From: Duganella sp. CF458
GTDB taxonomy: Bacteria; Pseudomonadota; Gammaproteobacteria; Burkholderiales; Burkholderiaceae_D
DNA: 64,000 nucleotides
Assembly: GCF_900113115.1 (NCBI RefSeq)
Contig: NZ_FOOF01000007.1
Location: forward strand, 124,001-188,000
Reading direction: 5' to 3'
Notes under the pieces: generated by a model
What the model was told of the DNA's origin: nothing
Seen by the model: only the letters and a program-made list of their open reading frames with translations
Database searches by the model: none
In this document: one piece after another, positions 11,633 to 40,548 of the stretch
How positions within the stretch are numbered: position 1 is the stretch's first letter
Layout of the letters: the number at the start of each line of letters is the position of its first letter
Program-made: the position numbers and the translations under genes

Positions 11633-12884
11633 ACATGGTCGAATACTTCGCGCCAAAGTAAAGGATGAAGGCATAGCAAGCGGCTGGCAGCATGAACGAT
11701 GCCTGCACGCCAATGGCGTCTGCCAGTGCGCCTTGTGCGAAAGGCACCAGCGCGCCGCCGACAATAGCCATGCACAGGATGCCCGAGCCCTGGCCGGTGT
11801 ACTTGCCCAGCCCGTGCAGCGCCATGCTGAAGATGGTCGGGAACATGATCGAGTTGCACAGGCCAACCGCGAGGATCGCCCACATGGCCACGCTACCCTT
11901 GCCGAAGGTCGCCGCGAGCACCAGCCCGATCGCCACCAGCGAGTTGACGGCCAGCGTCTTGCCGGGACTGGCCACGCGCATCACCGCGAACCCGATGAAG
12001 CGGCCTATCATGGCGCCGCCCCAGTAGATGCTGACGTAATGCGCCGCGTCGGCGTGCGCCAGGCCGGCGATATGCGACTCGCCGAGGAAGTTGATCAGGA
12101 AGCTGCCGATACTCACTTCGGCGCCAACGTACAGGAAGATGCCGATCGCGCCCAGCACCAGGTGGCGATGAGCCCAGGCCGAACCATGGCCCTCGCCGGC
12201 CAGCGACACATCTTCGCTGTCCGCAACCTGCGGCAGTTTGGCCACAAAGAACAGCACCGCCAGCAGTACCAGCGCAGCGGCCAGCGCCAGGTAAGGGCCG
12301 CGCACGGTGGCCGCATCGGCGACAGCCCCCACTGCCGCACCGGCGGTCGACAGGATCAGCAAGCCGCCAATGGCGGGGCCGATGGTGGTGCCGAGGGAGT
12401 TGAAGGCCTGCGTCAGGTTCAATCGGCTGGATGCCGTGCGCGGTGGGCCGAGCACCGTGACATACGGATTGGCAGCGACCTGCAGGACTGTGATGCCTGA
12501 TGCCAGCACGAAGAACGCCAGCAGGAACAAGCCATAGCCGCCGAACGAGGCCGGGTAGAAAAGTACGCAGCCTCCGGCCGCGATCAGCAAGCCGGCTACC
12601 GCGCCCTTCTGGTAGCCGATGCGGCGAATCAGGGCGCCCGCCGGAATCGATACAATGAAGTAGGCGCCAAAGAAGCAGAGCTGTACCAGCATCGCCTGGA
12701 AGTAGGACAGGGTGTAGATCGCCTTCAGGTGCGGGATCAGCACGTCGTTCAACGAGGTAATCAAACCCCACATGAAAAACAGCAGCGTGACGATGACCAG
12801 CGCGCTGGTGTTCGTTCCGTTCCGGGCGCCGCCTGCCGCTTGTGGCGGCGCAGCAGGCGTGGTGTTGGGTGCCATGGATGCCAT
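11619..12884 (-). CDS. FHS-family sugar/proton symporter (FucP/GluP-like)
   Basis: This major-facilitator protein of 421 residues has 12 predicted membrane helices. '[20 protein letters not shown]' and '[14 protein letters not shown]' are signatures of the fucose/glucose/galactose permease family. GAGGAGA upstream of ATG 12884 decides the start. Its place between the GH92 and GH31 genes makes it the likely inner-membrane importer of the mannose or glucose that these enzymes free in the periplasm. The precise substrate is an inference. Confidence 0.85.
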
Positions 12885-12907
12885 GATTGTCTCCTCAATT
12901 TTTATAG

Positions 12908-15310
12908 TTACATGCCGGCAGGTGGATGCGGCAGGTCGCGGCCATGCGTGCCCCATCCGGCGGTGTCAGGCTGCGGTGCAAGCTTGAACGACAGGGTACC
13001 AGCACTTTGCAGTTGTTCCCAATCCAGCCATACGCGCGACAACGGGCGACCGCTCCACTGTACCGACTGCACGAAGCGGCGTTCGCCCGGCTTGGCCTCC
13101 GGTGCTTCGATGCGCAAGGTGCGGCCCTGCGGCAGGTCGATTTCGGCCCGTGCAAAGCGCGGCGCGTGCAGCAGGAAGCGCCCGCTGCCCGGTGTGTCCG
13201 GATACAGGCCCAGTGCGCTGAACAGGTACCAGGCCGACATGGTGCCCAGGTCGTCATTGCCGGTGACCCCGCCTGGTCCGTTGCCGAACAGGGTTTCCGC
13301 TGCGCGCAGCACAGTGGTGGTTTTCCACGGTTGCCCCATCAGGGTATACATCCACGGCGCGTGCAGGTCCGGCTCGTTGTTCGGGTTGTAGCGGAACTGG
13401 CTGTAGTAGCTGTAGGCACCCACCACCCAGGACCTGCGTACGGCCGACGGATCGGCCAGCACGACGTCGTAATCGAAGAACTGGTCAAGGCGCTGCAAGG
13501 CTTTAGCCTGGCCGCCCATGGCCGCTGCCAGGCCTGGAACATCCTGCGGCACCAGCCATTGGTACTGCCAGGCCGTGCCCTCATGGAAGCCTCGCTCGGC
13601 ACGGGGGTCGTAACTGCCATTCAGGTCGGTGAACCAGCTGCCGTCCAACACGCGCGGACGCGGGAAGCCGCGTTGCCCGGTCGGGGCGTCGATCACCGAC
13701 GGGTCCCACACCTTGCGCCAGTTAAGGGCGCGCTGCTCGAGCAAATGGCCATCTTTCGCCTGGCCGAGCGCCTTGGCCATGATCGCCAGCGAACTGTCGG
13801 CCAAGGCATATTCCAGCGTGGCCGAAGCGCCGTGGTGGGGGTCGATGTCCATGCCTTTGGAGACGAAGCCGCGGTCATATTGGACGAAGCCCTGGCTCAG
13901 GTAGTTTGGATTGCCGGCCCGGCCTTGGGCGCGGATGCGCGATGGCGGCACGCCGAAAGCATTTTCGCGCAGCGCGACGTAGGCTTCGCGCTCACGGCCT
14001 TTCAGTGCGCCGAAGCGCCACAGGTCGACCAGGAACGGCGTGACCGGGTCGCCGGTCATCACATTGCTGTCGAAATTGGCGTAGCCCCAACGCGGCAGCC
14101 AACCACCCTGCTCGCGGATCTTCAACACCGAGTTGGCGATGTCGCGCGAGCGCTGCGGACGCAGCAAGGCAAGCAGCTGGTTCTGCGCGCGGTAAGTGTC
14201 CCACAACGAGAAGAACTCGTAGTAGGTCCAGTCGTTAGCGGCGTGCAGCTCCCCGTCATAGCCTCGATAGCGGCCATCGGCGTCGTTTCCTGTCAGCGGC
14301 TGCAGCAGTGCGTGATACAGGGCGGTGTAGAACACGGTGCGGTCGTCGTTGCTGCCGCCTTCAATGCGTACGCTGCCCAGCTCCTTCTGCCATGCAGCCT
14401 GCGCCTTTTCCCGCATTGCGTCAAAGGTAAGCGGCTTGGCGCCCGCCATGCCTTCGGCTTCCAGGTTGATGCGCGCGCCTTCCGCATCGACGTGGGAAAT
14501 CGCGCTGACCGCCGTCACCGCCTGGCCGTTCTTGAGGTCGAAGGTCAGCCAGACGCCGTGTGGGCGGCTGTCACCTTGCTGGCTCGGCCCCTTCAAGCCC
14601 GGCCACCCGCCGCGGTCGTCCCAGATGCCGTTGGCGACGAATGGCCGGTCGAACACCATGCGGAACCAGGTGGTGTATTGGGCACCGCCGCAGAAGCTTT
14701 TGGTGACGATCTTGCCTTCGACGCTGCGTTCGTCCAGCACGCGAACCTCGCTGCCAACCACGGAATGGCGTTCGTTGGCCTGGCCCAGGTTGAGCAGCAC
14801 ATGGCCGCTGGAGATGCCGGCGGCGAAGGTGTAGCGCTCGGCGGCGGCGCGGGTCAGCGCGGTGGCTTCGGCGGTAATCCCGCCATAACTGGTGAGCTGC
14901 ACCTTGTAGTAGCCGGCTTGGCCAACCTCACCCTCGTGGCTGTAGTTGGCGGCGTAGCGCTTGTAGTTGAAGCTCTCCGCCTTCTTGGTATCGAAATCGC
15001 CGCCGGGGCCGATGCTGCCGGTGACCGGCAATACCGAAAGCTGACCGCCCTGCTCCCAGCATCCGGCGCCGGACAGGAAGGAATGACCGAAGCCGCGAAT
15101 GCGCGCGTCGCTGTAGTGCCATCCGGCGTAATGCTCACCGGTCGGGCTGACCTGGATCATGCCGAAAGGAGCCGAGGCGCCGGGGAAAGTATTACCTTCG
15201 TCCTGGGTTCCGATGAAGGTATTGACCGGCATCTCGGCCGGTGCGGCGCCCAGCGGCAGCGCGAACGCAGCCAGCAGGACTGAGCAAAGTGTGAAGCGGA
15301 TTGCTTTCAT
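12908..15310 (-). CDS. GH92 exo-alpha-mannosidase
   Basis: The 800-residue protein begins with a signal peptide ('[19 protein letters not shown]'). It shows GH92 hallmarks: '[17 protein letters not shown]', '[12 protein letters not shown]', '[14 protein letters not shown]' with the likely acid Glu, and '[18 protein letters not shown]' with the likely base Asp. GH92 enzymes are calcium-dependent inverting alpha-mannosidases acting on N-glycan mannose. The usual DCGQMS motif reads DLGTMS here, which may mark a subgroup with another linkage preference. It shares a TAATG junction with the kinase gene. Confidence 0.92.
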
Positions 15311-16233
15311 TACGAGACCTCTCCTTCGAGCAATGCGAATAACTGCTGCATGGCGGCGGGCGGCGGCGGTGTTGCTCCGGACTGGAGGCAGGCGGCGGAA
15401 CCGGCAGCCAACGCAGCGTGCAGGTGGGACTGCAGCGCACGGCCCGGATGGCGCGCAAGGCTGTGCAACAGGCCGGCCACGCTGGCGTCGCCCGCGCCAA
15501 CCGTATCGACCACAGCGACCGCAGGCGCGCGGGCATCGGCGCGCTGATCGCCATGGAACAGGCTTGCGCCCTGGCCACCGCGCGTGAGCAGGCAGTACGC
15601 CGAGGGCGCGGCTGCACGCAGCTGCTGCAGCGCCTCGTCCAGCGGCACGCCGGGGAACAGGCCGCGCAAATCGTCGTCGGAGACCTTGATCACGTCGGCC
15701 AGTTCCGCCATGCTGCGCAAGGTCGGGGCATACCGCTCGTCCATCAGGTTGCGGTAGTTAGGATCGTAGCTGATCGCCACGCCCTGCTCCTTCAGCTTTT
15801 CAGCCAGCGCCACCAGGTTCGAAGCCAGGGGCTCGCGCGCCAGGCTGATGCCGCCGAAATGCGCCCAGCGCAGGTCGCGCGACCAGTATTCCGGCAGCAC
15901 CTCCTGATCAAAATGCAGGTCGGCGCTGTCGTCGCCGATAAAGAAATAGCGCGGCGGCTCGCCCTGCTCCACGATGGCCAGCAGCGGCGAGCGCTCAACG
16001 CGCTGCAACAGGCGCAAGTCCAGGCCCACAGCCTCGCTGGCCGCCCACAACGCATCGCCGAATCGATCGCGGCTGATGGCGCCGGCGAAGGCGGTACGTT
16101 CGCCCAGCACCGCCAGCGCACGCGCCACGTTCCACACCGAACCGCCGACGCGGCTGACCCAGCGCTCGTCGCCCTGGTGAATCATGTCGGTCAGCGCCTC
16201 TCCGGCGCACAGCATCAGTGGTGCGTCACGCAT
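15310..16233 (-). CDS. PfkB-family sugar kinase, probable fructokinase
   Basis: The 307-residue ribokinase-fold enzyme has 'GGSVWNVARALAVLGERTAF' (sugar site), 'SYDPNYRNLM' and the catalytic 'DTVGAGDASVAG' near residue 240. Next to a mannose isomerase that yields fructose, fructose is the most likely substrate, giving fructose 6-phosphate for glycolysis. ATG 16233 overlaps the end of the isomerase gene by 8 nt. A mannokinase or 2-keto-3-deoxygluconate kinase role cannot be excluded. Confidence 0.85.
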   Translation of the reverse strand: MRDAPLMLCAGEALTDMIHQGDERWVSRVGGSVWNVARALAVLGERTAFAGAISRDRFGDALWAASEAVGLDLRLLQRVERSPLLAIVEQGEPPRYFFIGDDSADLHFDQEVLPEYWSRDLRWAHFGGISLAREPLASNLVALAEKLKEQGVAISYDPNYRNLMDERYAPTLRSMAELADVIKVSDDDLRGLFPGVPLDEALQQLRAAAPSAYCLLTRGGQGASLFHGDQRADARAPAVAVVDTVGAGDASVAGLLHSLARHPGRALQSHLHAALAAGSAACLQSGATPPPPAAMQQLFALLEGEVS

Positions 16234-17440
16234 GATCGACCGCTCCCAACGCCGCCACGATGTCGTAGCAGGCACCCATGGTGTGGTAGTCCACTTTACC
16301 GGCCGGGCTCTTTTCGTCGCTCAGTTTGCGGTTGTCGCCGGACAGGATGCGGTACCAGGCACCATGCTCGTGGTCGACCAGGTGGGCCCAGCTATAGGAC
16401 CAAAGGCGCTGGTACCAGTCCCAGTACTCGGCCTTGCCGGTGCGAGTGGCCAGCATGGCCGCAGCAGCCGTGCTCTCGGCCTGCACCCAGAAATACTTAT
16501 GTGGATCGCAAACGGTCAGGTCCGGTGCCAGCGAGTAAGCCAGGCCACCGTGGACGACATCCCATCCGTTATTCACCGCAGCCTGGAACAGGCGCTCCGC
16601 GGTCGGCAACAGCCAGCCCGGGTCCTTGTTCAGCACCCCGCCGCGCGCTTCCAGTAGCAGCAGCAGCTTGGCCCATTCGGTGAAATGGCCTGGCTGGTAG
16701 CCCCATGGGCGGAACAGGTTTTCCGGATCGTCGATATTGAAGCGCCAGTCCGGCTGCCAGTTTGCGTCGTAATGCTCCCAGATCAAACCACCGCAACGTG
16801 CCGCCTGGCGCTGGGTGATGTTGAAAGCGACAGTGTAAGCGCGCTCCAGGAAGCGCTGCTCGCCGGTGGCCTGGTGCGCTGCCAGCAGTGCTTCGCAGGC
16901 GTGCATATTGGCGTTCTGGCCGCGGTAGCTCGAAAGCACGCTCCAGTCCGGAGAGGCTTCGTCGGCGTAAAGGCCGTCCTGCTCGTTCCAGAAGCGCTTT
17001 TCCATCAATTCGAACGTTTCGCCGATCCAGGCGCGCGCTTCTTCCAAACCCGCCATCGTGGCGTGCGCATACGCGAGCAGCACGAAGGCCTGGCCGTAGG
17101 CATGCTGGGTGCCGTCCTCCACTTCATGGCCGTTCAACATCCAGGCGTAGCCACTACCTTCCGGGTCGCGGTGTACGTCACGCAGGAAGCGCAGCGCATG
17201 GCGCGCGCCTTCCTGGTAGGCCGGGTCCTGGAAATGGCGGTAAGCCATGGAATAAGTGAACACGAAGCGCGTGCTGCTGACCAGATGCCGGTGCCGGGCG
17301 TCGTAGACAGTGCCGTCGTCCTTGAAGTAGTGATAAAGGCCGCCGGCCGGATCGATCGCGCGAGGGTGGTAAAAGCGCATGGTGTGGCGCGCGTGCTCGA
17401 GCAGGACGTTCGGGTCGCGGAAATTCGGGAGACTGGTCAT
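16226..17440 (-). CDS. AGE-family isomerase, probable D-mannose isomerase
   Basis: The 404-residue alpha/alpha-barrel protein belongs to the N-acylglucosamine 2-epimerase family, in the YihS/mannose isomerase branch. Histidines in 'NMHACEALLAAHQATG', 'QPGHFTEWAKLL' and 'VDYHTMGACYD' match the conserved active-site histidines. No signal peptide is seen, so it works in the cytoplasm, probably turning mannose into fructose for the neighbouring kinase. It follows lacI by 19 nt in the same operon. The alternative is cellobiose 2-epimerase, less likely given the mannosidases. Confidence 0.85.
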   Translation of the reverse strand: MTSLPNFRDPNVLLEHARHTMRFYHPRAIDPAGGLYHYFKDDGTVYDARHRHLVSSTRFVFTYSMAYRHFQDPAYQEGARHALRFLRDVHRDPEGSGYAWMLNGHEVEDGTQHAYGQAFVLLAYAHATMAGLEEARAWIGETFELMEKRFWNEQDGLYADEASPDWSVLSSYRGQNANMHACEALLAAHQATGEQRFLERAYTVAFNITQRQAARCGGLIWEHYDANWQPDWRFNIDDPENLFRPWGYQPGHFTEWAKLLLLLEARGGVLNKDPGWLLPTAERLFQAAVNNGWDVVHGGLAYSLAPDLTVCDPHKYFWVQAESTAAAAMLATRTGKAEYWDWYQRLWSYSWAHLVDHEHGAWYRILSGDNRKLSDEKSPAGKVDYHTMGACYDIVAALGAVDHA

Positions 17441-17459: not shown

Positions 17460-18491
17460 CTAGTCGTCGCAACTGCTTTCGCGCACGATCAGTTCGACTG
17501 GCATGGTTATCTGGGAGGTGTTTTCTTCGGGTTTCTGGAGTAGCAGTTCGATGCCCGCCCGTCCAAGGTCTTCCTTGTCCACGTGGATGGTGCTGAGCGG
17601 GGGAATGGCGGCGGCGGCGCTGCTGATATCGTCGAAGCCGACAATCGCAATGTCATGCGGGACCTTCATGCCCTCGTTCAAGCAATGCTTCATGGCGATC
17701 AGCGCTGTGCTGTCGTTGTAGCAAAACAGGGCGTCGGGCCGTTTAGGAAGACTGAGCAGGCTGCGCATGGCTTCCACCACGGCGTCGTCGCCCTCGCCCA
17801 TGGTGGGAACGATGACTTCCAGGTCCGGATCGGCAAATACCCTGGCATCGAACAGCGCCTGGCGGAAGCCGCGGTTGCGCTGCTGGATGCTGTAATGGGC
17901 CAGGGAGCCGGACATCATCGCGATGCGCTTGTGGCCGCAGCGCAGCAAGTGCTGGGTAGCCAGGTAGCCGCCACGCGCATTGTCAGGGTTAATCGAGGTG
18001 AAGCCGCGACGGTGCATGTCGACCAGCACGATAGGCTTGCCGGACTGCTGCAAGGCTGCCAGTACTTCCGGCTCGAAGAAGCCCGCGCACAGGATGGCAT
18101 CGGGCTGGTGCACGCGAATCAGGCCCTGCACCGGCTCGGCTGGTCCGACCGCGATAAAGGACAAGGCAATGCCCTCGCGCCGGCAGGCCGCTTCGGCGCC
18201 ATGCAGGACCGGGGAGTAGAACTGGCTTGATGCGAGCGTATTGTGCTGGCTGTGCAACAGGAAGGCGATACGGCGGATCCGCCCCTTCTTGAGCTGACCA
18301 AAGTCGTAGCCCATTTTCTCGGCGGCCTGGCGCACCTGGTTGCGGGTGACCTCGGTCATGCCGGCCTGGTTCTTCAATGCGCGCGAGACCGTGCCGATCG
18401 ACAGCCCGGTGGCTTCTGCGATGTCGCGCAAGGTCACCAGGCTCACGGCTGCACCCTTTGACGGGAATTCAAGTGCATGAAGAGTCTCCAT
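17460..18491 (-). CDS. LacI-family transcriptional regulator of the mannoside operon
   Basis: The 343-residue regulator has an N-terminal helix-turn-helix ('TLRDIAEATGLSIGTVSRAL', about 20-39), a hinge and a periplasmic-binding-protein-like effector domain ('AIVGFDDISSAAAAIPPLST' near 290). It is the first gene of the unit lacI-isomerase-kinase-GH92-permease-GH31, so it would control its own operon. A perfect palindrome GTTTAATAAAC lies 6 nt before the start and may be its operator. ATG 18491 is used; an in-frame GTG 15 codons later, just before the helix-turn-helix, is an alternative. Confidence 0.88.
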   Translation of the reverse strand: METLHALEFPSKGAAVSLVTLRDIAEATGLSIGTVSRALKNQAGMTEVTRNQVRQAAEKMGYDFGQLKKGRIRRIAFLLHSQHNTLASSQFYSPVLHGAEAACRREGIALSFIAVGPAEPVQGLIRVHQPDAILCAGFFEPEVLAALQQSGKPIVLVDMHRRGFTSINPDNARGGYLATQHLLRCGHKRIAMMSGSLAHYSIQQRNRGFRQALFDARVFADPDLEVIVPTMGEGDDAVVEAMRSLLSLPKRPDALFCYNDSTALIAMKHCLNEGMKVPHDIAIVGFDDISSAAAAIPPLSTIHVDKEDLGRAGIELLLQKPEENTSQITMPVELIVRESSCDD

Positions 18492-18496
18492 ATTCA

Positions 18497-18507
18497 GTTT
18501 AATAAAC
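18497..18507. promoter_or_regulatory. Palindrome in the lacI leader, candidate LacI operator
   Basis: GTTTAATAAAC is a perfect odd-length palindrome between the predicted transcription start (about 18565) and the lacI ATG. A near-copy, ATTTACTAAAC, lies in the TonB-receptor leader. These two lack the second CTAAA element seen in the upstream sites, so they may bind a different protein, plausibly LacI as a roadblock. Confidence 0.45.
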
Positions 18508-18571: not shown

Positions 18572-18645
18572 TTTATATCAGCCGCCTTTTACAAGCGTCA
18601 ACAAAAGCAGTAAAAATCGCAGTCTTTTAGCTTGTTTTAGTAAAC
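18572..18645 (-). promoter_or_regulatory. lacI operon promoter with upstream paired CTAAA activator site
   Basis: On the minus strand TTGACG (18596-18601), 18 nt and TATAAA (18572-18577) form a good promoter. Upstream, GTTTACTAAAA (18635-18645) is followed by CAAGCTAAAA (18625-18634), giving CTAAA twice with a 10-bp period. The 11-mer ends exactly 33 nt before the -35 box, the same spacing as at the TonB-receptor and CBM9 promoters. The site overlaps the last codons of the beta-mannosidase gene. Confidence 0.7.
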
Positions 18646-21345
18646 ACTGGCTTCGCCGGTTAGTGAGCGCAGGCGCAGCGATTTTCGCAGCGTCGCCAGG
18701 CTGGCTTTCGATGCAATTCGCAAGGTCACGGATTCTCCAGGCAGCAGGGTCATTGCGTTATCGGCAATCTCGGCGTCCACCCTGGCAAATTCGATCCAGA
18801 CAGCGCGGGCGAGCTTCGCCGCACGCATCTCGAGTACGAAACCGTTGCCGTCGCGGCGCAGCACTGCATGCAGGCCGGGATCGGGCCAGTGCATGTCCTT
18901 CGCAGCCTTGAAGTAGACCACGCGGCGCGAGGCCGGCTCACCCTCCGCCCGCAAGTCGAAGACCGCAACCGTTGATGCCGGATCGGCACCGCCCAGCAAA
19001 TCCCCGTCCGTGTAGCTGGCCAGCTTTGCCGCCGACAACGGGGTGAGTTCGACTGGCCTGCGCTCGTCGCGCAACACCCTGCCGTCAAGCGTCATCAGCC
19101 GCAAGCGGAGCTCGCCCCGCGCCTGATGCGTGCGGTCGTTGAGCAGGCTGATTTTTGTGTTGCCTTGCGCGTCTCGCAACGCGGCAACGGCAACCGGTGC
19201 GTAGAAGCGACGCGCATGGAACTGCAGTGCCTTCCAACGCCCAAACCAATCCACGCTCGACCACGAGGCGCCTGGCCAGACATCATTGAGCTGCCAATAC
19301 AGCGAGCCCATCGTGTAAGGCCGGCTGGCACGGTGATGCAGCGCCGCCAGTTCGATACCCTCCGCTTGCGCCGCCTGGCCAAGATAGACAAAATGGGCGA
19401 AGTCCTTCGGCTCACCGAACTCGTAATTCACGTACTTCATCAAGCGTTCATTACCTTTTCCGGCCATGAATTTCTGGTGCGCCTCGATGACGGGGGCGGC
19501 GATGCCTTGCTCGACATGCTTGGCGAAGGCATCGATCGTGCGTTGCACCGGCCAAGCCTGAAGGCCATACTCCGACATGAATCGCGGCGTGATCTCCAGG
19601 TACTTTGAAGGCGGATGCGCCGGGTTGCCCCAAACCTCCCAGTAGTGCATGTCGCCGCTGGCAGGCGTGTTGGCCACTTCGGCCAAGTCGTCGCTGGGCG
19701 AGCCGGCCCAGTAGGCGATGCCGCCGCCCTCTTCCGCCACGACCTGGCGCAGGTCGGTGCCGAAAAGCTGTACATAGCCGTTCCAGACTTTGGTGGCGAA
19801 GGCCGGATCGGCCTGCATCATTTCCTTGCCGGGGCCCCAGTATTTCCAGGCGATTTCCTCCTCGTTATTGCCGCACCACAGGGCAATGCTTGGATGGTTG
19901 CGCAGGCGCCGCACGTTGTCGCGCGCTTCCGCAACCACGTTGGCACGAAAGGCATCGTCATAGGCCGGCGGCATGCCGCCGCCGAACATGAAGTCCTGCC
20001 ATACCAAAAGACCCAGTTCGTCGGCGAGGTCAAAGAAATCCTCGCTCTCGTAATAGCCTCCGCCCCAACTGCGCAGGAAATTCATGTTGGCGTCGCGCGC
20101 CGACTGCAGCACGCGGCGCAATTGCGCCTTGCTTATGCGCGGCTGGAACATATCGAAAGGGATGCTGTTCGCGCCTTTGGCGAATACCGGAATGCCGTTC
20201 ACTTCGAAATAGAAGCTCTTGCCCTTGTCGTCCGGCTCACGCCGCAAGGCGATGCTGCGCAAGCCGGTGCGTGCGCTGGCCGCGGCTACCGCCGCCTTGC
20301 CATCGCCGATCTCAGCCTCAAAGCGGTACAGTGGCTGTGCGCCATACCCGTTCGGGAACCAGCGTTGCGGACGCTCGATGCGCACAGGGAGCTCGATGCG
20401 ATTGTCGCCCGCGCGCAATTCGACGCGGCGCAGCGCCGCCAGGGAGCGCTTTCCGCCAGGCGTGGTTTGCCACAGGCGCAAGTCGAACGCTCCGTCACGC
20501 ACAGCTTGCGCCGACACGACGGCCACGATGTCGGCGCGCGCTTCGTCGACGCGATCCTGCCGCAATTGCAGGTTGTCGATGCGCACCGCATCCCAACTCT
20601 CCAGCACGACCGGTTTCCAGATGCCGGCGGTAACGTAGCGCGGCCCCCAGTCCCAGCCATAGTGGTAGCCGGGCTTGCGGGCGAAGTTGCCGGTCATCGC
20701 ATCCGGCGGCTCATCGCCGTACGGCGAAGGATAATTCCCGGCCAGCTTGCGCGGCATGACCCGCACGGCCGGCAGCAGCCGTACGATCGGCGAACGCAAT
20801 ACGATGCGCAGTTCGTTGCCCTTCGCGCGCAGCTTGCCCTGTACCGGAATGCGCCAGGTGCGGAAGGCGTTATCGGCATCAAGCAGCTTTTCACCGTTCA
20901 GCCAGACCTCGGCAAAGGTATCGAGGCCTTCAAACACCAGGTCACTGCGCGCTGCCTGGCGCGGCGCATCGAAGCGAGTTCGGTATTCCCAGTCGGCGAG
21001 TCCTATCCATTGCAAGCCGGCTTCCGGCGCGCCTACGTAGGGATCTGGAATCAGCTTGTTCGCAAACAGGTCGGTGTGCACCGTGCCGGGCACCTTCGCG
21101 GCATGCCAGGGCAACGCTTCGGGATGCGCAGCCAATTGCGTGTTGCCTGGCATAAGGCGGAACGTCCAGCCGCTATCGATAACGGAACGCTGCGTTGTGC
21201 CTGCCCACGCGACTGCGGTAACCACCGTCAGGCACAGGCCCAATAGCAAGGCCATCATGGAACGCCAGTACAGGTGCGTACTCGTGGCGCCTTCGCCTTC
21301 CAATGCCGCGATTGTGCTCTTGCCGACTCGGTTGTGCAGGTTCAT
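18637..21345 (-). CDS. GH2 beta-mannosidase
   Basis: The roughly 900-residue enzyme has a hydrophobic N-terminal segment ('MALLLGLCLTVVTAVAWAG') and then the GH2 order: jelly-roll sugar-binding domain, beta-sandwich, barrel. 'LWCGNNEEE' holds the acid/base Glu and 'FMSEYGLQAWP' the nucleophile Glu; 'GYHYGWDWGPRYVTAGIW' is typical of beta-mannosidases. It would cut the single beta-linked mannose of N-glycan cores or beta-mannan oligomers. The start is uncertain: ATG 21345 leaves about 30 residues before the membrane segment, and ATG 21258 is an alternative. A terminator hairpin precedes it, so it probably depends on read-through. Confidence 0.88.
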   Translation of the reverse strand: MNLHNRVGKSTIAALEGEGATSTHLYWRSMMALLLGLCLTVVTAVAWAGTTQRSVIDSGWTFRLMPGNTQLAAHPEALPWHAAKVPGTVHTDLFANKLIPDPYVGAPEAGLQWIGLADWEYRTRFDAPRQAARSDLVFEGLDTFAEVWLNGEKLLDADNAFRTWRIPVQGKLRAKGNELRIVLRSPIVRLLPAVRVMPRKLAGNYPSPYGDEPPDAMTGNFARKPGYHYGWDWGPRYVTAGIWKPVVLESWDAVRIDNLQLRQDRVDEARADIVAVVSAQAVRDGAFDLRLWQTTPGGKRSLAALRRVELRAGDNRIELPVRIERPQRWFPNGYGAQPLYRFEAEIGDGKAAVAAASARTGLRSIALRREPDDKGKSFYFEVNGIPVFAKGANSIPFDMFQPRISKAQLRRVLQSARDANMNFLRSWGGGYYESEDFFDLADELGLLVWQDFMFGGGMPPAYDDAFRANVVAEARDNVRRLRNHPSIALWCGNNEEEIAWKYWGPGKEMMQADPAFATKVWNGYVQLFGTDLRQVVAEEGGGIAYWAGSPSDDLAEVANTPASGDMHYWEVWGNPAHPPSKYLEITPRFMSEYGLQAWPVQRTIDAFAKHVEQGIAAPVIEAHQKFMAGKGNERLMKYVNYEFGEPKDFAHFVYLGQAAQAEGIELAALHHRASRPYTMGSLYWQLNDVWPGASWSSVDWFGRWKALQFHARRFYAPVAVAALRDAQGNTKISLLNDRTHQARGELRLRLMTLDGRVLRDERRPVELTPLSAAKLASYTDGDLLGGADPASTVAVFDLRAEGEPASRRVVYFKAAKDMHWPDPGLHAVLRRDGNGFVLEMRAAKLARAVWIEFARVDAEIADNAMTLLPGESVTLRIASKASLATLRKSLRLRSLTGEASVY

Positions 21346-21363
21346 TGCGACACCCAAAACAGG

Positions 21364-21396
21364 AAAAAACCTCCCCAGCCGCGAGGCATGGGGAGG
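21364..21396 (-). terminator. Intrinsic terminator after the TonB-dependent receptor gene
   Basis: In the minus-strand RNA an 8-bp stem CCTCCCCA/TGGGGAGG with an 11-nt loop is followed by six U. It lies between the receptor stop (21410) and the beta-mannosidase start (21345). No promoter is visible between them, so the terminator probably leaks and sets receptor mRNA above enzyme mRNA. Confidence 0.75.
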
Positions 21397-21409
21397 AAGG
21401 AGGGAAGCA

Positions 21410-24400
21410 TCAGAACTTGTAGTTCAGGCCAAAGTAGGCAACGCGGCCGGCATATCCGTTGGAGTAGAAACGGTCCTTGGTGTCGTTGCCGAGGTGGGAG
21501 CGCGTTTCTTCCTTGGTCAGGTTCAGCACCGAGGCGGTCAGGCTCAGCTCCTTGGTGATGTTGTAGGCAACGTTCAGGTCGACCTGGTAGTACGGCTCTT
21601 CATACACGTTCAAGCCATTGACCAGTCCATCCACCACTTCGCCGCGACGGTTGTACGAAGCTCGCGCCAGGAACTTGTCGGTTTCGTAGAACACGGTCAG
21701 GTTCATCTGGTTCTTGGCGCTGCCGACCAGTGGCGACTCGCCGATCTTGGTGCCGTCCGCCATCGTGATGTCGGCCTGGTTGGTCTTGTTGTACGTATAG
21801 TTGAACTGCACGCCGAGCCCCATGTCCAGCGTATGCTGCGCGTACAGTTCCACGCCCTTGGACACGCCGTCGCGGCCACCGGCGCTGGTCGAGTAGCGCT
21901 GTACGACCACGTTCTGGCCGCCCACGTTCATGGTCACGTCGCGTACCACGGGCACGGCGAAGTTGCTGACGTTCTTGCGGAACAGGCCAAGGCCGAGCAC
22001 CGAGCCGCGGTGGAAGTACCACTCCAAGCCCAGGTCGACCTGCTTGGCCTTGTATGGCTCGAGCTGCTTGTTGCTGCCGGCGCCGAACCAGCCTTGCTGG
22101 TCGCCGCCGCCGATCAGGCGTCGGTCGTTGACGTATTCCTGGCTGTAGTACTGCAGGCCGCCGGGAAATGCGATGTCGTTGTAGCTTGGACGCGAGATCA
22201 CTTTGGATGCTGCCGCCCGCAGCAGCAGGTCTTTGGTCAGGTCATACGCGACGTTCAAGCTGGGCAGCACATCGTTATAGGTGCGATCAAGCGAACTGAC
22301 CACAAACGACGAGTCGCGCGCAATGCTGTCCGGCAGGCGGGTAAAGCCGCTGGTGCACCCGGAGCCGGCAGGCGCGCCCACAGCCGGCAGGCCGCCCGCC
22401 AGGCAAGGTGCCGGGCTGCCATTGGCGCCGTTGAAGAAGTAATCGTTGTAGCTTTCCACTTGGTCGGTCGAATCGGCATGCTGCCTGGTGCGCACGAAAC
22501 GCAGGCCGACGTTGCCCCGCAGGCGTTCGGTCTTCACGTTGGCCTGCAGGTAGGCCGAGGAGATTTTCTCGTCGACGTTGTAGACGAAATTGTCTTCGTT
22601 ACGTGTCTGCATCTGGCCGTAGCTCTGGTTCAGGAAGGAGATATAGGCCGGGTAGTTAATCGCCGGGAACGCGCTGGTGTTGATGCCCCCTGCCAGGTTG
22701 CCCAGGGATTGGCTGTACAGGAACTGCGGCTGGAACTTGTTCGCAGTCGGATCGCAGCCAGCCTGGTAGCGATTATCGTAGTCCGTGGGGTCGGCGCCCT
22801 GGCAAACCCAATAGTTGTTGCCGGTGGCGCGGTGGGTGCCGCCCTTGCGGTACTTGGCGCCGAACTGTAGCGAATCCAGCCAGCTGCTGTCGGTGTGCCA
22901 GGTCATGTCGGCCTGGGCGTATTTCTGCTGCGTGCTGTTCCTGGTCCACGAAGAGGAGGTGGAACCGAGATCGATTTCGCCGATGCCCTTGGCCAGGTTG
23001 GCCATCAGCTCCGGCGAGAACGCCATGGTCGGCGTGCCGGCCGTGCTCCAGGAACTGGCGTAGTTGCCAAGGGTCCAGCTACCGTCCGCATTTTGCACGC
23101 GCGGCTTGATCGGCATCGTCATCTGCATCCGCGGCCCGCCACTGGCCCAGGTACGGCCGAACTTGAAGATACCGTCCAGCGACTTGCCGCGCCATTCCGC
23201 TTCAAAGTCGGCGGTCTGGGACAGCGACTTTTCCTGGTTGTAGCTGCCGGTGATCTGCGGCGTCGGGATGGTGCAATCGTCAGGACCCCAGCCGCCTGGC
23301 TGCTGGCCGGCCGCCGCAGCTTGCGCTTCGCTGCAGTAGTAAGCCTTGCCGGCGTGGGCGCTGTACTGCGCGCCGGTGACCAGGGTGCCGCTGCGGTCGA
23401 AGGTCAGGCCGTCGAGCATGCGGCCGCCCGGCCAGTTGCCGTCGCCGTTGTAACGTGCCAAATTCCACTCGGGGACCTTCAGGATGTTTGTCTGCGAGTC
23501 CTGCGACAGGTTGAAGCGGAAGTAGTTGGCTGTCAGGATCAGGTTGCGGACCGGCTTGAACTGCAGGGTCATCTGGCCGCCCTTGCGCTCGCGCTCCTCG
23601 TTCTTCACGCTCAGGTTGACCGACGTCGGCATCATGAAGTTGGTGTAGTACTTGCCGCCCTGGTCGTAGAAGCCGGACTGGCCCCACCAGTAGGAGCTGA
23701 GGTCGGAAGGCTTGCCATTGACGTCGGTGGCCGGGTGGGCGTCGTAATCGTCGCCATACCATTGCCAGTTTTCGGTACTGGCGCCCATGGTGCGGGTGGT
23801 GCGCTTCTGCTTGGTCAGGCCGACCAGGATGCCGAAGCGGTTGTCTTCATCATGCCAGGCGTACTGGCCGGAGAACTGGCCGTCGGTCTTCTTGGTGGTG
23901 TCGGCCCAGGTCCCTTCGGCGGAAACAAAGCCGGAGCCGGACTTCACCTCCAGTGGACGACGGGTATGCAGGATCACGGTGCCGCCAACGCCGCCCTCGT
24001 CGATGCGCGCTTCCGGAGTCTTGAACAGCTCCGCGCTGGACAGCATGTTCGACGGCAGCAGCGTGTAGTTGAACGACCGCGATGGATCGCCGTTGGATTC
24101 GGCGGTGGCGATGTAATTGCCGTTCAACTGGGTCAGGGTCAGCTCCGACGACAGGCCGCGCACGCTGACGTTCTTACCCTCGCCGCCGCTGCGGGTCACC
24201 ACCACGCCCGGCACGCGCTGCAGCGCATCGGCCACGTTCTTGTCCGGGAATTTGCCGATGTCTTCGGCGGTGATCACTTCAACGATCGAGTTCGCATCGC
24301 GCTTCTGGTCGAGGCTCTTCTCGATCGCATATCGGTAACCGGTGACAACCACGGTATTCGGATCGGCCTTCTGGTCGGACGCGGTCTGCGCCTGGGCGCT

Positions 24401-24493
24401 TGCAAGGGAAAGCAGTGCCACGCTCACCGCCATGGCGATGGGTGTGGCGCGGCAGCCGCGCTGCCGTGAAGCGAGTTGGGTTCTGAACGTCAT
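21410..24493 (-). CDS. TonB-dependent outer-membrane receptor for oligosaccharide
   Basis: The 1027-residue protein has a signal peptide ('MAVSVALLSLASAQAQ'), a plug domain (about 45-170; 'VADALQRVPGVVVTRSGGEG') and a large beta-barrel ending in 'YFGLNYKF' with terminal Phe. It matches the carbohydrate-type TonB receptors of Xanthomonadales and Oxalobacteraceae ('VVVTGYRYAIEKSLDQKR'). It lacks a long N-terminal signalling extension. Co-location with mannosidases points to mannose-containing oligosaccharides as ligand. AGGAGA precedes ATG 24493. The leader is about 118 nt with one palindrome. Confidence 0.92.
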   Translation of the reverse strand: MTFRTQLASRQRGCRATPIAMAVSVALLSLASAQAQTASDQKADPNTVVVTGYRYAIEKSLDQKRDANSIVEVITAEDIGKFPDKNVADALQRVPGVVVTRSGGEGKNVSVRGLSSELTLTQLNGNYIATAESNGDPSRSFNYTLLPSNMLSSAELFKTPEARIDEGGVGGTVILHTRRPLEVKSGSGFVSAEGTWADTTKKTDGQFSGQYAWHDEDNRFGILVGLTKQKRTTRTMGASTENWQWYGDDYDAHPATDVNGKPSDLSSYWWGQSGFYDQGGKYYTNFMMPTSVNLSVKNEERERKGGQMTLQFKPVRNLILTANYFRFNLSQDSQTNILKVPEWNLARYNGDGNWPGGRMLDGLTFDRSGTLVTGAQYSAHAGKAYYCSEAQAAAAGQQPGGWGPDDCTIPTPQITGSYNQEKSLSQTADFEAEWRGKSLDGIFKFGRTWASGGPRMQMTMPIKPRVQNADGSWTLGNYASSWSTAGTPTMAFSPELMANLAKGIGEIDLGSTSSSWTRNSTQQKYAQADMTWHTDSSWLDSLQFGAKYRKGGTHRATGNNYWVCQGADPTDYDNRYQAGCDPTANKFQPQFLYSQSLGNLAGGINTSAFPAINYPAYISFLNQSYGQMQTRNEDNFVYNVDEKISSAYLQANVKTERLRGNVGLRFVRTRQHADSTDQVESYNDYFFNGANGSPAPCLAGGLPAVGAPAGSGCTSGFTRLPDSIARDSSFVVSSLDRTYNDVLPSLNVAYDLTKDLLLRAAASKVISRPSYNDIAFPGGLQYYSQEYVNDRRLIGGGDQQGWFGAGSNKQLEPYKAKQVDLGLEWYFHRGSVLGLGLFRKNVSNFAVPVVRDVTMNVGGQNVVVQRYSTSAGGRDGVSKGVELYAQHTLDMGLGVQFNYTYNKTNQADITMADGTKIGESPLVGSAKNQMNLTVFYETDKFLARASYNRRGEVVDGLVNGLNVYEEPYYQVDLNVAYNITKELSLTASVLNLTKEETRSHLGNDTKDRFYSNGYAGRVAYFGLNYKF

Positions 24494-24556
24494 GCGTGTC
24501 TCCTGGTTATGCCCTATTGCGGGCTCTATATGGCGGTAGCAAGCCTCGAATCACCG

Positions 24557-24567
24557 ATTTACTAAAC
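24557..24567. promoter_or_regulatory. Near-palindrome in the TonB-receptor leader
   Basis: ATTTACTAAAC differs from the lacI-leader palindrome GTTTAATAAAC at one arm end and in the centre. It lies in the predicted receptor leader, 64 nt before the ATG. It may be a LacI operator acting downstream of the promoter. Confidence 0.4.
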
Positions 24568-24616
24568 GATGTTGATGTTGTCTGCATATCGACGGGATCG
24601 CGTCCACTCAGGAGAA

Positions 24617-24689
24617 TTCTTACAAAGGAGACCATGGCACTTCAACAAACTTTCAAAGTTTGAATGAAGTTTAGTTTTGATTAGTAAAC
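24617..24689 (-). promoter_or_regulatory. TonB-receptor promoter with paired CTAAA activator site
   Basis: On the minus strand TTGAAG (24640-24645), 17 nt and a weak -10 box TAAGAA (24617-24622) are preceded by GTTTACTAATC (24679-24689) and AAAACTAAAC (24669-24678). The 11-mer ends exactly 33 nt before the -35 box. A 17-nt palindrome, CAAACTTTCAAAGTTTG on the plus strand (24646-24662), fills the space next to the -35 box. A weak -10 box fits dependence on an activator. Confidence 0.65.
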
Positions 24690-24743
24690 AAGAGTGCGGC
24701 AGAATTGCGACAGCGGCTTTTCGCCCTGGAGTGACGTGTGCCG

Positions 24744-25514
24744 CTATTTGTTTAGTGTGGAAGTATTTCCGGAGAAATGCAGATACCCCCAACGGCTCGG
24801 AACGTGCATGTCGATCACGCCTTGCGGCGACCATACCCAGTTGTCTTCCTTCGCCTGGCCCGCGGTCCATTCCACGCGGCTGAAGTTGATGCGCCAGATG
24901 GTTCCGTGAGCGGGAGGCGGCACTGCCTGGCGCGAGGCGAAGGCGCTTAGGGGATACGCCATTTCCACCGTCCAGCCGCGGTCCTTGTCATCGGGCTTAT
25001 TCAAGCTGCCCTGCACGGCAATGGCGGTCTTCAAGCCTTCAATGTCCCAACTGTTGTCCGGCTGGCCGTCTTCGTTGTAGGGCTTGGGCAGGAACAGGTC
25101 CCAGCCCGTGTTGAAGGCGTTGATCTCGAACTCGTAATAGCTCCTGGATGCCGGCAGCGGCTTGACGAAGACCTCGAAGTCGTTGTCCTTGAAGATGACG
25201 GAATCGCGCTGCGTCAGCGTGGCCTTCACTTCGGGCTCCTCCAATTCGGCCCCGATGTAGAGGTATTGGTCGTCCCACAGCATTTTCACGCGCGTGCGGA
25301 ACTTCGGACGCGGCCTGCTGTCGCCTTCGATGTCGACGAAGTCGGAAGTCCACGGCGCGTTTTGCCACGCCGGGTCGTCCAGCTTTCCGTCGACATGGAT
25401 AGGGCCCGCAGCCCGCAGACATTCATAGGCGAGCGGCGCGGAATCCTCAGCCGCAGCGGGAATGGCGGCCGCCAGTGCGGTCCCGAATACGACAGCAAAT
25501 ACCTTCTTCATCAT
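24744..25514 (-). CDS. Secreted CBM9-like carbohydrate-binding protein
   Basis: The 256-residue protein has a signal peptide ('VFAVVFGTALAAAIPAAAED') and a carbohydrate-binding-family-9-like domain: 'IHVDGKLDDPAWQNAPW' near the start, 'MLWDDQYLYIGAELEEP' and 'NDFEVFVKP' in the middle, 'WRINFSRVEW' towards the end. No catalytic domain is seen, so it probably binds or presents glycans in the periplasm or on the surface. GGAGGGG before ATG 25514 decides the start; the ATG three bases on is equally usable. It heads the locus and is divergent from the AraC regulator. Confidence 0.75.
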   Translation of the reverse strand: MMKKVFAVVFGTALAAAIPAAAEDSAPLAYECLRAAGPIHVDGKLDDPAWQNAPWTSDFVDIEGDSRPRPKFRTRVKMLWDDQYLYIGAELEEPEVKATLTQRDSVIFKDNDFEVFVKPLPASRSYYEFEINAFNTGWDLFLPKPYNEDGQPDNSWDIEGLKTAIAVQGSLNKPDDKDRGWTVEMAYPLSAFASRQAVPPPAHGTIWRINFSRVEWTAGQAKEDNWVWSPQGVIDMHVPSRWGYLHFSGNTSTLNK

Positions 25515-25540
25515 AGTCCCCTCCACATTTGAGCAAAAAA

Positions 25541-25613
25541 CTTATATCAAGGAGACAAGACCGGTTCAACAGGCCCGTAAATTTAAGCCGAACTTTAGCG
25601 AACTTTAGTAAAC
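25541..25613 (-). promoter_or_regulatory. CBM9 gene promoter with paired CTAAA activator site
   Basis: On the minus strand TTGAAC (25564-25569), 17 nt and TATAAG (25541-25546) form a good promoter. GTTTACTAAAG (25603-25613) and TTCGCTAAAG (25593-25602) lie upstream; the 11-mer ends exactly 33 nt before the -35 box. The site is also 33 nt before the divergent AraC-family start, so it could set both directions. Confidence 0.7.
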
Positions 25614-25646
25614 TTGTGGCGTCCTTCCAGCATCCCAGGTGTCACC

Positions 25647-26411
25647 GTGCCTATCATTCATCCGACTTTGGTCGACATCGACATCCGCAGCTACGGCGAG
25701 CGGTGGACGGCGGACCAGCACACGTTCGCCCAACTGGTGCTGCCGCTCTCGGGCGAAGTAGAACTCGATATCGAGGGCCGGGGCGGCCGCCTGAATCCAT
25801 TGAAGGGAGCCGTCGTCGTGGCAGGGGCATGGCATTCCCAGCAAAGCAATGTTGAAAATCACTCCCTCATTGTCGACGTGGACCAGGCAGCCGTGTGCCA
25901 GCCGATCTGGGAACAACTGGCAGACCGTCCCTTCCCGGACATCAGCCCGGCTGCGCGCAAGCTGGTCGAATTCATGCAGCTTTCGATCGCAGGGCGCGCC
26001 GCACCGCCTTCGCTGCTCCAGGGCTGGGTGCCGCTGCTGCTCGATACGCTTACGATGGAGCCGCCGCGCCTGCAATCGCGGCTGGCTGCGCTGCTGGCGC
26101 ATGCCGAAGCGAATCTTGCGCTACCCTGGACGACAGAGTCGATGGCGCAGCTTGCGCGAATGAGCGTAAGCCGCTTGCATGCCTTGTTCCGGGACGAACT
26201 GGAAACCAGCCCACGCGCCTGGCTTCTCTCGCGGCGGCTCAATCGTGCCTGCGAGTTGTTGCGCCATACCAGCCAGCCGATTGCGGATATCGCACTGAGT
26301 ACCGGTTTCGGCGACCAGAGCGCCCTCACCCGCGCCATGCGCGTCCAGCTCGACACCACGCCGGCGGCCTACCGTCGACTGGAGCAGGAGCCGGCGACAA
26401 AAAACCAGTAG
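25647..26411 (+). CDS. AraC-family transcriptional regulator, candidate activator of the mannoside locus
   Basis: The 254-residue protein has an N-terminal cupin-like sensing domain ('FAQLVLPLSGEVELDIEG', 'GAVVVAGAWHSQQS') and a C-terminal double helix-turn-helix ('WTTESMAQLARMSVSRLHALF', shown in part, and 'PIADIALSTGFGDQSALTRA'). GTG 25647, preceded by AGG 7 nt upstream, is the preferred start. It is divergent from the CBM9 gene across one of the paired CTAAA sites. AraC proteins place two helix-turn-helix motifs one helical turn apart, matching the 10-bp period of these sites, so it is the best candidate to bind them. Confidence 0.82.
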   Translation: MPIIHPTLVDIDIRSYGERWTADQHTFAQLVLPLSGEVELDIEGRGGRLNPLKGAVVVAGAWHSQQSNVENHSLIVDVDQAAVCQPIWEQLADRPFPDISPAARKLVEFMQLSIAGRAAPPSLLQGWVPLLLDTLTMEPPRLQSRLAALLAHAEANLALPWTTESMAQLARMSVSRLHALFRDELETSPRAWLLSRRLNRACELLRHTSQPIADIALSTGFGDQSALTRAMRVQLDTTPAAYRRLEQEPATKNQ

Positions 26412-27427: not shown

Positions 27428-27985
27428 ATGACAAGCATCCGCCAGAACTTCTTCATGATCCTTGCGACAATGGTCATGTTCGGCGCTGCGCTGCTGATCA
27501 ACGAACTCCTGTTCAAGCAGCTGGAATTCGCGGAAGGTATCAACTGGATCTACCTCCCGGCCGGCGTGCGCCTGCTGGCCACCTTGCTGTTTGCCGAAGC
27601 AGGGGCGATCGGCCTGCTGGCGATCTCCTGGCTTTACTGCTTCCTGGTCCTGTTCCCGAATGAACCGGTGCGTGCTTTTGCGGGCGGCATCCTGGCCAGT
27701 GCCGCGCCCTACCTGGTCTACCTTGGCGCCAAGCGCTGGCTTGACCTGAAAGGCTCGCTGGCCAACCTGGCCGCCTGGCAGGTGCTGGTCTGTGCTATCG
27801 CATACTCCATAGCCAGCCCCTTGCTGCATCATATCTGGTTCGCCCTGTACGAGGGACGCGACCAGTTGCTGGGCAGCTTTGCCGTCATGGCGCTCGGCGA
27901 CCTGACGGGTACCGTGCTCCTGCTGTTCTTCACGAAATGGGTGATGCGGCTCTCCACCCAGGCGCCCCCGCAGCAGGAGCCCTAG
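27428..27985 (+). CDS. Integral membrane protein of unknown function (MASE1-like?)
   Basis: The 185-residue protein consists of about five or six hydrophobic helices. 'WIYLPAGVRLLATLLFAEAG' resembles the opening of MASE1 membrane sensor domains, but no cytoplasmic output domain follows, so the likeness may be shallow. It ends with a short proline- and glutamine-rich tail. The 3' end overlaps polB by 4 nt on the opposite strand. I do not recognise a specific function. Confidence 0.6.
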   Translation: MTSIRQNFFMILATMVMFGAALLINELLFKQLEFAEGINWIYLPAGVRLLATLLFAEAGAIGLLAISWLYCFLVLFPNEPVRAFAGGILASAAPYLVYLGAKRWLDLKGSLANLAAWQVLVCAIAYSIASPLLHHIWFALYEGRDQLLGSFAVMALGDLTGTVLLLFFTKWVMRLSTQAPPQQEP

Positions 27986-30285: not shown

Positions 30286-30291
30286 GCCGAA

Positions 30292-30315
30292 ATTATACTG
30301 TATGAACACACAGTA
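30292..30315 (-). promoter_or_regulatory. LexA (SOS) box and -10 element of polB
   Basis: CTGTATGAACACACAG (30298-30313) fits CTG-N10-CAG and is flanked by TA on both sides, as in the best SOS boxes. The minus-strand TATAAT (30292-30297) directly abuts it, so LexA would cover the promoter. No clear -35 box is seen. Cleavage of LexA after DNA damage would release polB. Confidence 0.8.
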
Positions 30316-30318
30316 AAC

Positions 30319-30347
30319 TTGCAACATTAAGATAAGGTTGATAGAAT
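30319..30347 (+). promoter_or_regulatory. Promoter of the outer-membrane barrel gene
   Basis: TTGCAA (30319-30324), 17 nt and TAGAAT (30342-30347) precede the gene; transcription would start near 30354 with a leader of about 50 nt. The -35 box is only 3 nt from the LexA box, so LexA could also touch this promoter. Confidence 0.55.
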
Positions 30348-32269: not shown

Positions 32270-32411
32270 TTTGTCTCCTGATTAAGCTGAATGCCCAGCA
32301 TTCTAGAGGCCCGGCGGCATAGACGCTACCCTGTTACAAGCCTGATACTTTTCGTACAGGGGACGGCTGTTAGAATCCATCCTCGAAGTTCTTCATTTTC
32401 CTTTCGAGACC

Positions 32412-37667: not shown

Positions 37668-37739
37668 GTAAATCCTTGAGTTGAAGAAGTGGCAATCTAT
37701 CGAAGATACGCGTTTTCGAGCCCCCGCAACATGAAATAT

Positions 37740-37772
37740 GTCGTATATTCAAGATATTCGAATTCATATACG
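37740..37772. promoter_or_regulatory. AT-rich divergent control region of puuD and the LysR gene
   Basis: The 113-nt gap is far more AT-rich here than its surroundings and contains ATAT-N5-ATAT and the palindrome ATTCGAAT (37756-37763). Such dyads are typical LysR binding sites between a regulator and its target. No confident -35/-10 pair is visible. Confidence 0.4.
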
Positions 37773-37780
37773 TACGCAAG

Positions 37781-38713: not shown

Positions 38714-38787
38714 CAGGTATATAGGGCTGCTTATGGTGGGCGACGCTGATCGGGATATGATCGATTGTTCAAGATAGGACAACTGCG

Positions 38788-40542: not shown

Positions 40543-40548
40543 GACAAG

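What the first reader, a model, noticed from the sequence alone, without database searches (positions are those of the whole stretch)
18572..25613. Shared activator-type promoter layout at three units of the mannoside locus
Reading the minus strand, the lacI, TonB-receptor and CBM9 promoters each carry GTTTACTAAnn followed by nnnnCTAAAn, so CTAA(A) recurs with a 10-bp period. The 11-mer ends exactly 33 nt before the -35 box in all three (sites 18625-18645, 24669-24689, 25593-25613). Identical spacing at three separate promoters, one with a weak -10 box, is hard to get by chance and points to one activator working from about 75 bp upstream. The AraC protein encoded next to the third site is the best candidate, since AraC proteins contact DNA through two helix-turn-helix motifs one turn apart. 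I know of no described regulon with this element.
Basis: partly seen in the sequence, partly recalled or inferred. Interest (0 to 1): 0.8.

Follow-up and report, generated by a model that had tools for sequence, protein, structure and literature searches.

The report
LacI-type switch upstream of mannoside promoters
Three sugar-scavenging promoters in a soil bacterium carry the same control site at the same distance, and comparison of related genomes indicates that it belongs to an unusual LacI-type regulator, probably working as an activator, and not to the neighbouring AraC protein.

Summary
The interpretation needs correcting. In relatives the element is an inverted repeat, GTTTA[G/C]-N8-10-CTAAA[C/A], next to a LacI-family gene. 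In 80 genomes the element and this LacI orthologue occur in the same 62 and are absent from the same 18; a close relative of the AraC protein is in 3 of 80. Position favours activation: 94 of 98 sites in 78 loci have a -35 (TTG[AC]) starting 24 or 25 nt after the site, at lacI, TonB-receptor, CBM9, GH92 and MFS promoters; 16 of 16 site pairs face outward. The LacI protein's hinge is four residues short, without the usual hinge motif, in 34 of 34 aligned orthologues, and the operator lacks the family's central CG. Best reading: a LacI-type dimer activating from about -70. Repression from the same site, perhaps with a second leader site seen at lacI and TonB-receptor promoters, is the main rival. 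There is no experiment.

The parts
18625..18645 (-). Site 1, GTTTACTAAAACAAGCTAAAA, upstream of the lacI-epimerase-PfkB-GH92-MFS genes; its TAA is also the stop codon of the GH2 gene
18596..18601 (-). -35 TTGACG, 23 nt after site 1
   Evidence: for relatives
18572..18577 (-). -10 TATAAA, 18-nt spacer
18497..18507 (-). second site in the leader, GTTTATTAAAC palindrome; a like site is in 21 of 46 lacI promoters of relatives
24669..24689 (-). Site 2, GTTTACTAATCAAAACTAAAC, upstream of the TonB receptor and GH2 genes
24640..24645 (-). -35 TTGAAG, 23 nt after site 2
24617..24622 (-). weak -10 TAAGAA, 17-nt spacer
24557..24567 (-). second site in the leader, GTTTAGTAAAT; a like site is in 19 of 21 TonB-receptor promoters of relatives
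25593..25613 (-). Site 3, GTTTACTAAAGTTCGCTAAAG, upstream of the CBM9 gene and abutting the AraC ORF as listed from a TTG start
25564..25569 (-). -35 TTGAAC, 23 nt after site 3
25541..25546 (-). -10 TATAAG, 17-nt spacer
17460..18491 (-). LacI-family regulator, the proposed binder of the element; hinge four residues shorter than in the other LacI proteins of this genome
16226..17440 (-). GlcNAc 2-epimerase-family protein, likely mannose to fructose
   Evidence: substrate inferred
15310..16275 (-). PfkB-family kinase, likely fructokinase
   Evidence: substrate inferred
12908..15310 (-). GH92 glycosidase (alpha-mannosidase family)
11619..12956 (-). MFS transporter
18637..21357 (-). GH2 glycosidase of beta-mannosidase type, downstream of the TonB receptor
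21410..24493 (-). TonB-dependent receptor
24744..25526 (-). CBM9-domain protein
25614..26411 (+).

Best explanation
The element is the operator of the LacI-family regulator encoded at 17460-18491. A dimer binds the two GTTTA[G/C] half-sites about 70 bp upstream of the transcription start, on a fixed face of the helix relative to RNA polymerase, and activates the lacI-epimerase-PfkB-GH92-MFS genes, the TonB receptor and GH2 genes, the CBM9 gene and probably a GH92 paralogue on another contig when mannosides are present. Shown by computation: the element, its inverted-repeat form in relatives, its polarity, its fixed distance to the -35 at several unrelated promoters, the co-occurrence with this LacI orthologue, and the shortened hinge. 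Inferred: binding by LacI, activation as opposed to repression, mannoside as ligand, contact with RNA polymerase, and the transcription units. At many lacI and TonB-receptor promoters a second GTTTANTAAAC site in the leader may add a brake or autorepression.
For: Co-occurrence: relaxed element in 62 of 80 genomes, LacI orthologue in the same 62, neither in the same 18 (140 element sites against 4 for the reversed pattern). 31 of the 80 were chosen for holding the exact element; the other 49, chosen for lacking it, give 31 with both and 18 with neither (Fisher 9e-14; not corrected for shared ancestry). Position: 94 of 98 sites have TTG[AC] 24 or 25 nt after the site end; 6 of the 94 have one at 22-27 nt on the other side too. 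Background for TTG at two given positions is 2.1%. The 90 sites with a single promoter-facing reading fall before lacI 46, TonB receptor 21 (all at 24), GH92 9, MFS 6, CBM9 1 and unassigned genes 7. Both offsets occur with half-site spacings of 8, 9 and 10. Pairs: in 16 of 16 loci with two sites within 170 bp, both outer sides (32 of 32) have a -35 at 24-25, the inner sides 4 of 32 at 22-27. Polarity: T[AG]A[AT] follows the distal half only in 47 of 63 distinct sites, the proximal half only in 1, both in 3, neither in 12. Precedent: CcpA, of the LacI family, activates with its site centred 31 or 21 nt from the -35 (PMC2329647, section 13 read); here the centre is 34-35 nt from the first base of the -35.
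Against: No binding or expression data. Core promoters are often good (-10 read as TATAAA or TATAAC in 20 of 46 lacI and 17 of 21 TonB-receptor promoters), so many may not need an activator; 14 of 46 lacI promoters have a weak AAGACT (best hexamer at 15-19 nt). LacI-family proteins are mostly repressors. Any gene of the locus would co-occur with the element; that LacI is the DNA-binding protein these loci share was only spot-checked. The 78 loci were fetched by LacI and cannot test co-occurrence. A second site in 40 of 90 leaders (0.3 expected) hints at repression or looping. 4 of 98 sites have no TTG[AC] at 22-27 nt; of 81 one-mismatch readings only 13 have TTG at 24 or 25; 11 of 78 loci have no exact site and 4 none at one mismatch.
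Confidence: 0.62

Rival explanations
1. Same LacI protein, but a repressor: bound about 70 bp upstream it holds RNA polymerase by contact, and with the second leader site it may form a loop as GalR does at gal (recalled); mannoside releases it.
For: Family habit. Second site in 19 of 21 TonB-receptor and 21 of 46 lacI leaders, on the far side of the promoter. Good core promoters in many cases.
Against: 0 of 23 of the CBM9, MFS, GH92 and unassigned promoters have the second site, yet keep the upstream spacing. The offsets of the second site (56, 80, 101-104, 114-120, 128 nt) share no helical phase (own arithmetic). 94 of 98 sites lie upstream of the -35 they are spaced to; overlap with other possible promoters was not examined.
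Confidence: 0.27
2. The neighbouring AraC protein is the activator.
For: It is encoded beside site 3 and has the AraC-type HTH domain. A weaker association exists: some AraC relative at E<=1e-30 in 43 of 62 element-bearing against 4 of 18 element-less genomes, p 0.0007.
Against: 19 of 62 element-bearing genomes lack any match at E<=1e-30; at 80% identity or more it is in 3 of 80. The site is an inverted repeat in relatives.
Confidence: 0.04
3. Another, unlinked transcription factor binds the element.
For: Other DNA-binding proteins of these genomes were not tested for co-occurrence.
Against: Element and LacI orthologue are missing together in 18 genomes; in spot-checked loci lacI keeps its site beside unrelated genes.
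Confidence: 0.06
4. Chance or leftover similarity by descent, no function.
For: Sites in orthologous promoters are related by descent.
Against: Non-homologous promoters share site and spacing with variable bases between; 152 oriented exact hits against 0 for the reversed halves at spacings 8-10.
Confidence: 0.01

Closest known systems
CcpA acting as activator (LacI family, Gram-positives)
   Same: LacI-family protein on an upstream site in helical phase with the -35 (PMC2329647, section 13 read)
   Different: CcpA sites have a central CG (same paper, passages) and centre 31 or 21 nt from the -35; here a local mannoside regulator, a CG-less site centred 34-35 nt away, and a short hinge
EbgR-like LacI-family regulators (LacR, GalR, RafR of Lactobacillus plantarum)
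   Same: Hinge residues and central CG pair are both missing (PMC2329647, passages read)
   Different: The passages read describe an insertion before helix 3 and lost residues, not a four-residue shortening; most L. plantarum members are expected to repress
GalR at the gal operon, two-operator layout (recalled)
   Same: An upstream site and a second one in the leader at many lacI and TonB-receptor promoters
   Different: Other promoters have the upstream site only; no fixed phase between the two
ManR regulons of the LacI comparative study (PMC4052901, passages read)
   Same: LacI-family control of mannose and mannoside genes; autoregulation common (72% in that study)
   Different: The motifs of those ManR groups could not be read here; that study found even palindromes for 1251 of 1303 regulators, 1173 with a central CG
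CRP class I activation (recalled)
   Same: Centre near -70 on a fixed helical face
   Different: Different protein family; polymerase contact not shown here

Membership tests
LacI/GalR family (protein) | LacI HTH plus periplasmic-binding-type domain | tested here: met
   PF00356 9.1e-11 and PF13377 3.5e-34; PDB relatives PurR, LacI, CcpA
LacI/GalR family (protein) | Hinge helix with the A[RQ]x[LM] motif after the HTH (usual, not universal) | tested here: not met
   34 of 34 aligned orthologues have a short hinge of one length without it; the 7 other LacI proteins of this genome have it. AF2 model: only a 3-residue helix at 64-66, block mean pLDDT 63
LacI/GalR family (operator) | Inverted-repeat operator | tested here: met
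   GTTTA[G/C]-N8-10-CTAAA[C/A], 98 physical exact sites in 67 of 78 loci; binding itself not tested
LacI/GalR family (operator) | Central CG pair (usual) | tested here: not met
   Base counts of the spacer show no fixed central CG
Repressor with operator over the core promoter | Site overlaps -35 to +1 | tested here: not met
   94 of 98 sites end 23-24 nt before a TTG[AC]; overlap with other possible promoters not examined
Class I activator | Site at fixed distance and face upstream of the -35 | tested here: met
Class I activator | Contact with RNA polymerase and loss of transcription without the regulator | not testable with these tools
   needs experiment
GalR-type looping repressor | Two operators around the promoter in constant helical phase | tested here: inconclusive
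   second site in 40 of 90 leaders, 0 of 23 outside lacI and TonB-receptor promoters; offsets not in one phase (own arithmetic)
AraC-family regulon | AraC gene co-occurs with the site | tested here: not met
AraC-family regulon | Direct-repeat binding site | tested here: not met
   Direct repeat in the window's three sites, but inverted repeat in relatives

The most novel reading that the evidence does not exclude
A clade of LacI-family proteins in Burkholderiales has lost the DNA-kinking hinge helix and become a dedicated class-I-type activator, with an asymmetric, CG-less operator locked at about -70 from promoters of mannoside genes, so that the promoter-proximal half-site sets the distance to RNA polymerase.
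Probability: 0.45. Interest if true: 0.68.

Novelty: new variant of a known kind. Interest (0 to 1): 0.56.

Why it matters
LacI is the textbook repressor. A whole clade with a cut-down hinge, a different operator and a strictly fixed upstream position would show how a repressor family can be turned into activators, and it gives simple predictions (loss of induction on deletion of lacI; 5-bp against 10-bp insertions). It also defines a mannoside regulon in Duganella, Massilia, Pseudoduganella, Roseateles, Paucibacter, Mitsuaria and Undibacterium records, which helps to annotate their glycan loci.

Tried and rejected
AraC as binder: rejected by presence and absence. Direct repeat with 10-bp period: rejected as the general form, since base 6 is C in only part of the sites. 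Looping with constant phase: not supported by the offsets of the second site (phase by own arithmetic). Wider spread of this LacI: at E<=1e-70, 1 of 274 genomes drawn from the class has it, the window's own; the 20 others listed are of other families, 253 were not listed. Literature: the letters of the motif are in 60 papers, 15 listed, none on a bacterial regulator by its title; Oxalobacteraceae with LacI, regulon and mannose, 0 papers; LacI family, transcriptional activator, TonB-dependent and mannosidase, 0 papers; LacI family, activator, class I and Massilia, 0 papers. Searches were wider and I saw only their listings.

A scan of 10 neighbouring ORFs in three loci (L078, L087, L109) used crude ORF picks, some of them probably in the wrong frame, and is only a spot check. 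Sites at one mismatch are noisy: at up to one mismatch, spacings 8-10, there are 234 oriented hits against 36 for the reversed halves, and of the 81 one-mismatch readings 13 have TTG at 24 or 25.

Dropped rows: L099 LacI has a stop inside the matched stretch and was left out of the alignment; that alignment holds 34 rows: the window's protein and 33 proteins from 32 of the 78 named loci (L064 gave two), so 46 loci are not in it. In the 80-genome test, 31 genomes were chosen because they hold the exact element and 49 because they do not; 30 further genomes of the two genera were left out by the 80-handle cap. The class, polarity and second-site counts use 90 of the 98 sites (4 without a -35 and 4 with one in both readings were left out).
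Full report
Check of the observation. The three elements are exact at the given places, and they are the only exact matches in the genome. The distance to the -35 is identical in all three. Site 1 may drive more than lacI: the epimerase, PfkB, GH92 and MFS genes follow on the same strand with small gaps or overlaps. Site 2 lies before the TonB receptor and, after it, the GH2 gene. The TAA of site 1 is also the stop codon of the GH2 gene.

Spread of the element. In 392 genomes of the family, the exact pattern occurs 48 times in 31 genomes, all in 2 of 44 genera, against 14 hits of the reversed control in 12 genomes of other genera. Of the 29 loci of 3 kb fetched around these hits (29 of the 48 sites, the window's genome counted apart), 28 hold a homologue of at least one gene of the window's locus; L026 holds none. 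In this genome a degenerate site (2 mismatches) lies before a GH92 paralogue on contig C28, with TTGCGA at the same 24-nt offset and TATAAA behind it, so the regulon probably has a fourth member. The other four 2-mismatch sites of the genome show no such layout by eye.

Which protein. A search for LacI orthologues in named genomes gave 78 loci. 67 of the 78 hold an exact GTTTA[G/C]-N8-10-CTAAA[C/A] site, and 74 of 78 one at up to 1 mismatch (none in L067, L068, L089, L105). These loci were chosen by LacI and cannot test co-occurrence, so I tested 80 whole genomes of the two genera. The relaxed element is in 62, the LacI orthologue (E<=1e-80) in the same 62, and the same 18 lack both. The AraC protein does not follow: 43 of the 62 and 4 of the 18 have some relative at E<=1e-30; only 3 of 80 reach 80% identity, and these lie beside an element, while the next best are 47-61% identical. 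Shared ancestry inflates the p-values. Any gene of the locus would co-occur with the element too. I prefer LacI because it is a DNA-binding protein whose gene keeps the site in front of it even among unrelated neighbours, such as thiamine genes in L078 and TctC and LysR genes in L087 (spot check).

Shape of the site. In relatives the site is an inverted repeat of GTTTA[G/C] half-sites with 8, 9 or 10 bases between; 152 oriented exact hits against 0 for the reversed halves. So the element has a direction.

Position. 94 of 98 physical sites have TTG[AC] 24 or 25 nt after the site end on one side; 6 of the 94 also have one at 22-27 nt on the other side, and 4 sites have none. The offset holds for lacI, TonB-receptor, GH92, MFS and CBM9 promoters and for all three half-site spacings, so it is the promoter-proximal half-site that is anchored. 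With a -10 usually 17-18 nt further on, the centre lies at about -70. In 16 of 16 loci with two sites within 170 bp, both outer sides carry the -35 at 24-25 nt, the inner sides only 4 of 32 at 22-27 nt; in nine of these loci the second gene is the divergent MFS gene. This is the layout of an activator that touches RNA polymerase. CcpA gives a precedent inside the family, with centres 31 or 21 nt from the -35 against 34-35 here (PMC2329647, section 13 read). The class-I comparison with CRP is recalled.

The protein. The LacI protein has the usual domains, but between the HTH and the first strand it is four residues short and lacks the A[RQ]x[LM] hinge motif; 34 of 34 aligned orthologues have this one length, while the seven other LacI proteins of this genome have the motif and the longer stretch (the difference of four counted by eye). 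The AF2 model shows three HTH helices and only a three-residue helix at 64-66, in a block of mean pLDDT 63. The operator lacks a central CG. Loss of hinge residues and of central CG go together in EbgR-like regulators (PMC2329647, passages read), so this correlation is known; the shortening and the upstream position are what differ.

Second site. A GTTTANTAAAC palindrome (up to 1 mismatch) lies in the leader of 19 of 21 TonB-receptor and 21 of 46 lacI promoters, and of 0 of 23 others; 0.3 were expected in all 90. In the window these are 24557-24567 and 18497-18507. It may be a brake or part of a loop. Its distance to the upstream site is not constant in phase (own arithmetic), and other promoters do without it.

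Verdict. The layout is real and shared by a regulon. The binder is very probably the LacI-family protein (my estimate 0.9). Activation is more likely than repression, but unproven. I found no description of this motif in the held library (listings only, apart from passages of PMC4052901 and passages and one section of PMC2329647); the library lacks most subscription papers.

Noticed in passing
window 18637-18645: The operator's TAA is also the stop codon of the GH2 gene (GTTTAC TAA), so the upstream gene ends inside the control site of the next unit.
   Followed up: partly
G000:C28:160545-160564, locus L006: A GH92 paralogue elsewhere in the genome has a degenerate copy of the site with the same 24-nt offset to a TTGCGA and a TATAAA -10: probable fourth regulon member.
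   Followed up: partly
L064, L065, L066, L079: Two lacI paralogues (75-77% and 58-59% identical to the window's) lie in one locus, about 9-10 kb apart, with epimerase, PfkB, GH92, MFS and CBM9 homologues between them.
   Followed up: no
window 27982-30327: A DNA polymerase of family B (Pol II type) lies close to the AraC gene and the mannoside locus.
   Followed up: no
window 32370-34700 and 37738-40982: Long ORFs (776, 328, 459 and 291 aa) without any Pfam match at 0.001; some may be wrong-frame.
   Followed up: no
window 36459-37667: A urate oxidase N-terminal domain protein overlapping an M20 peptidase gene.
   Followed up: no
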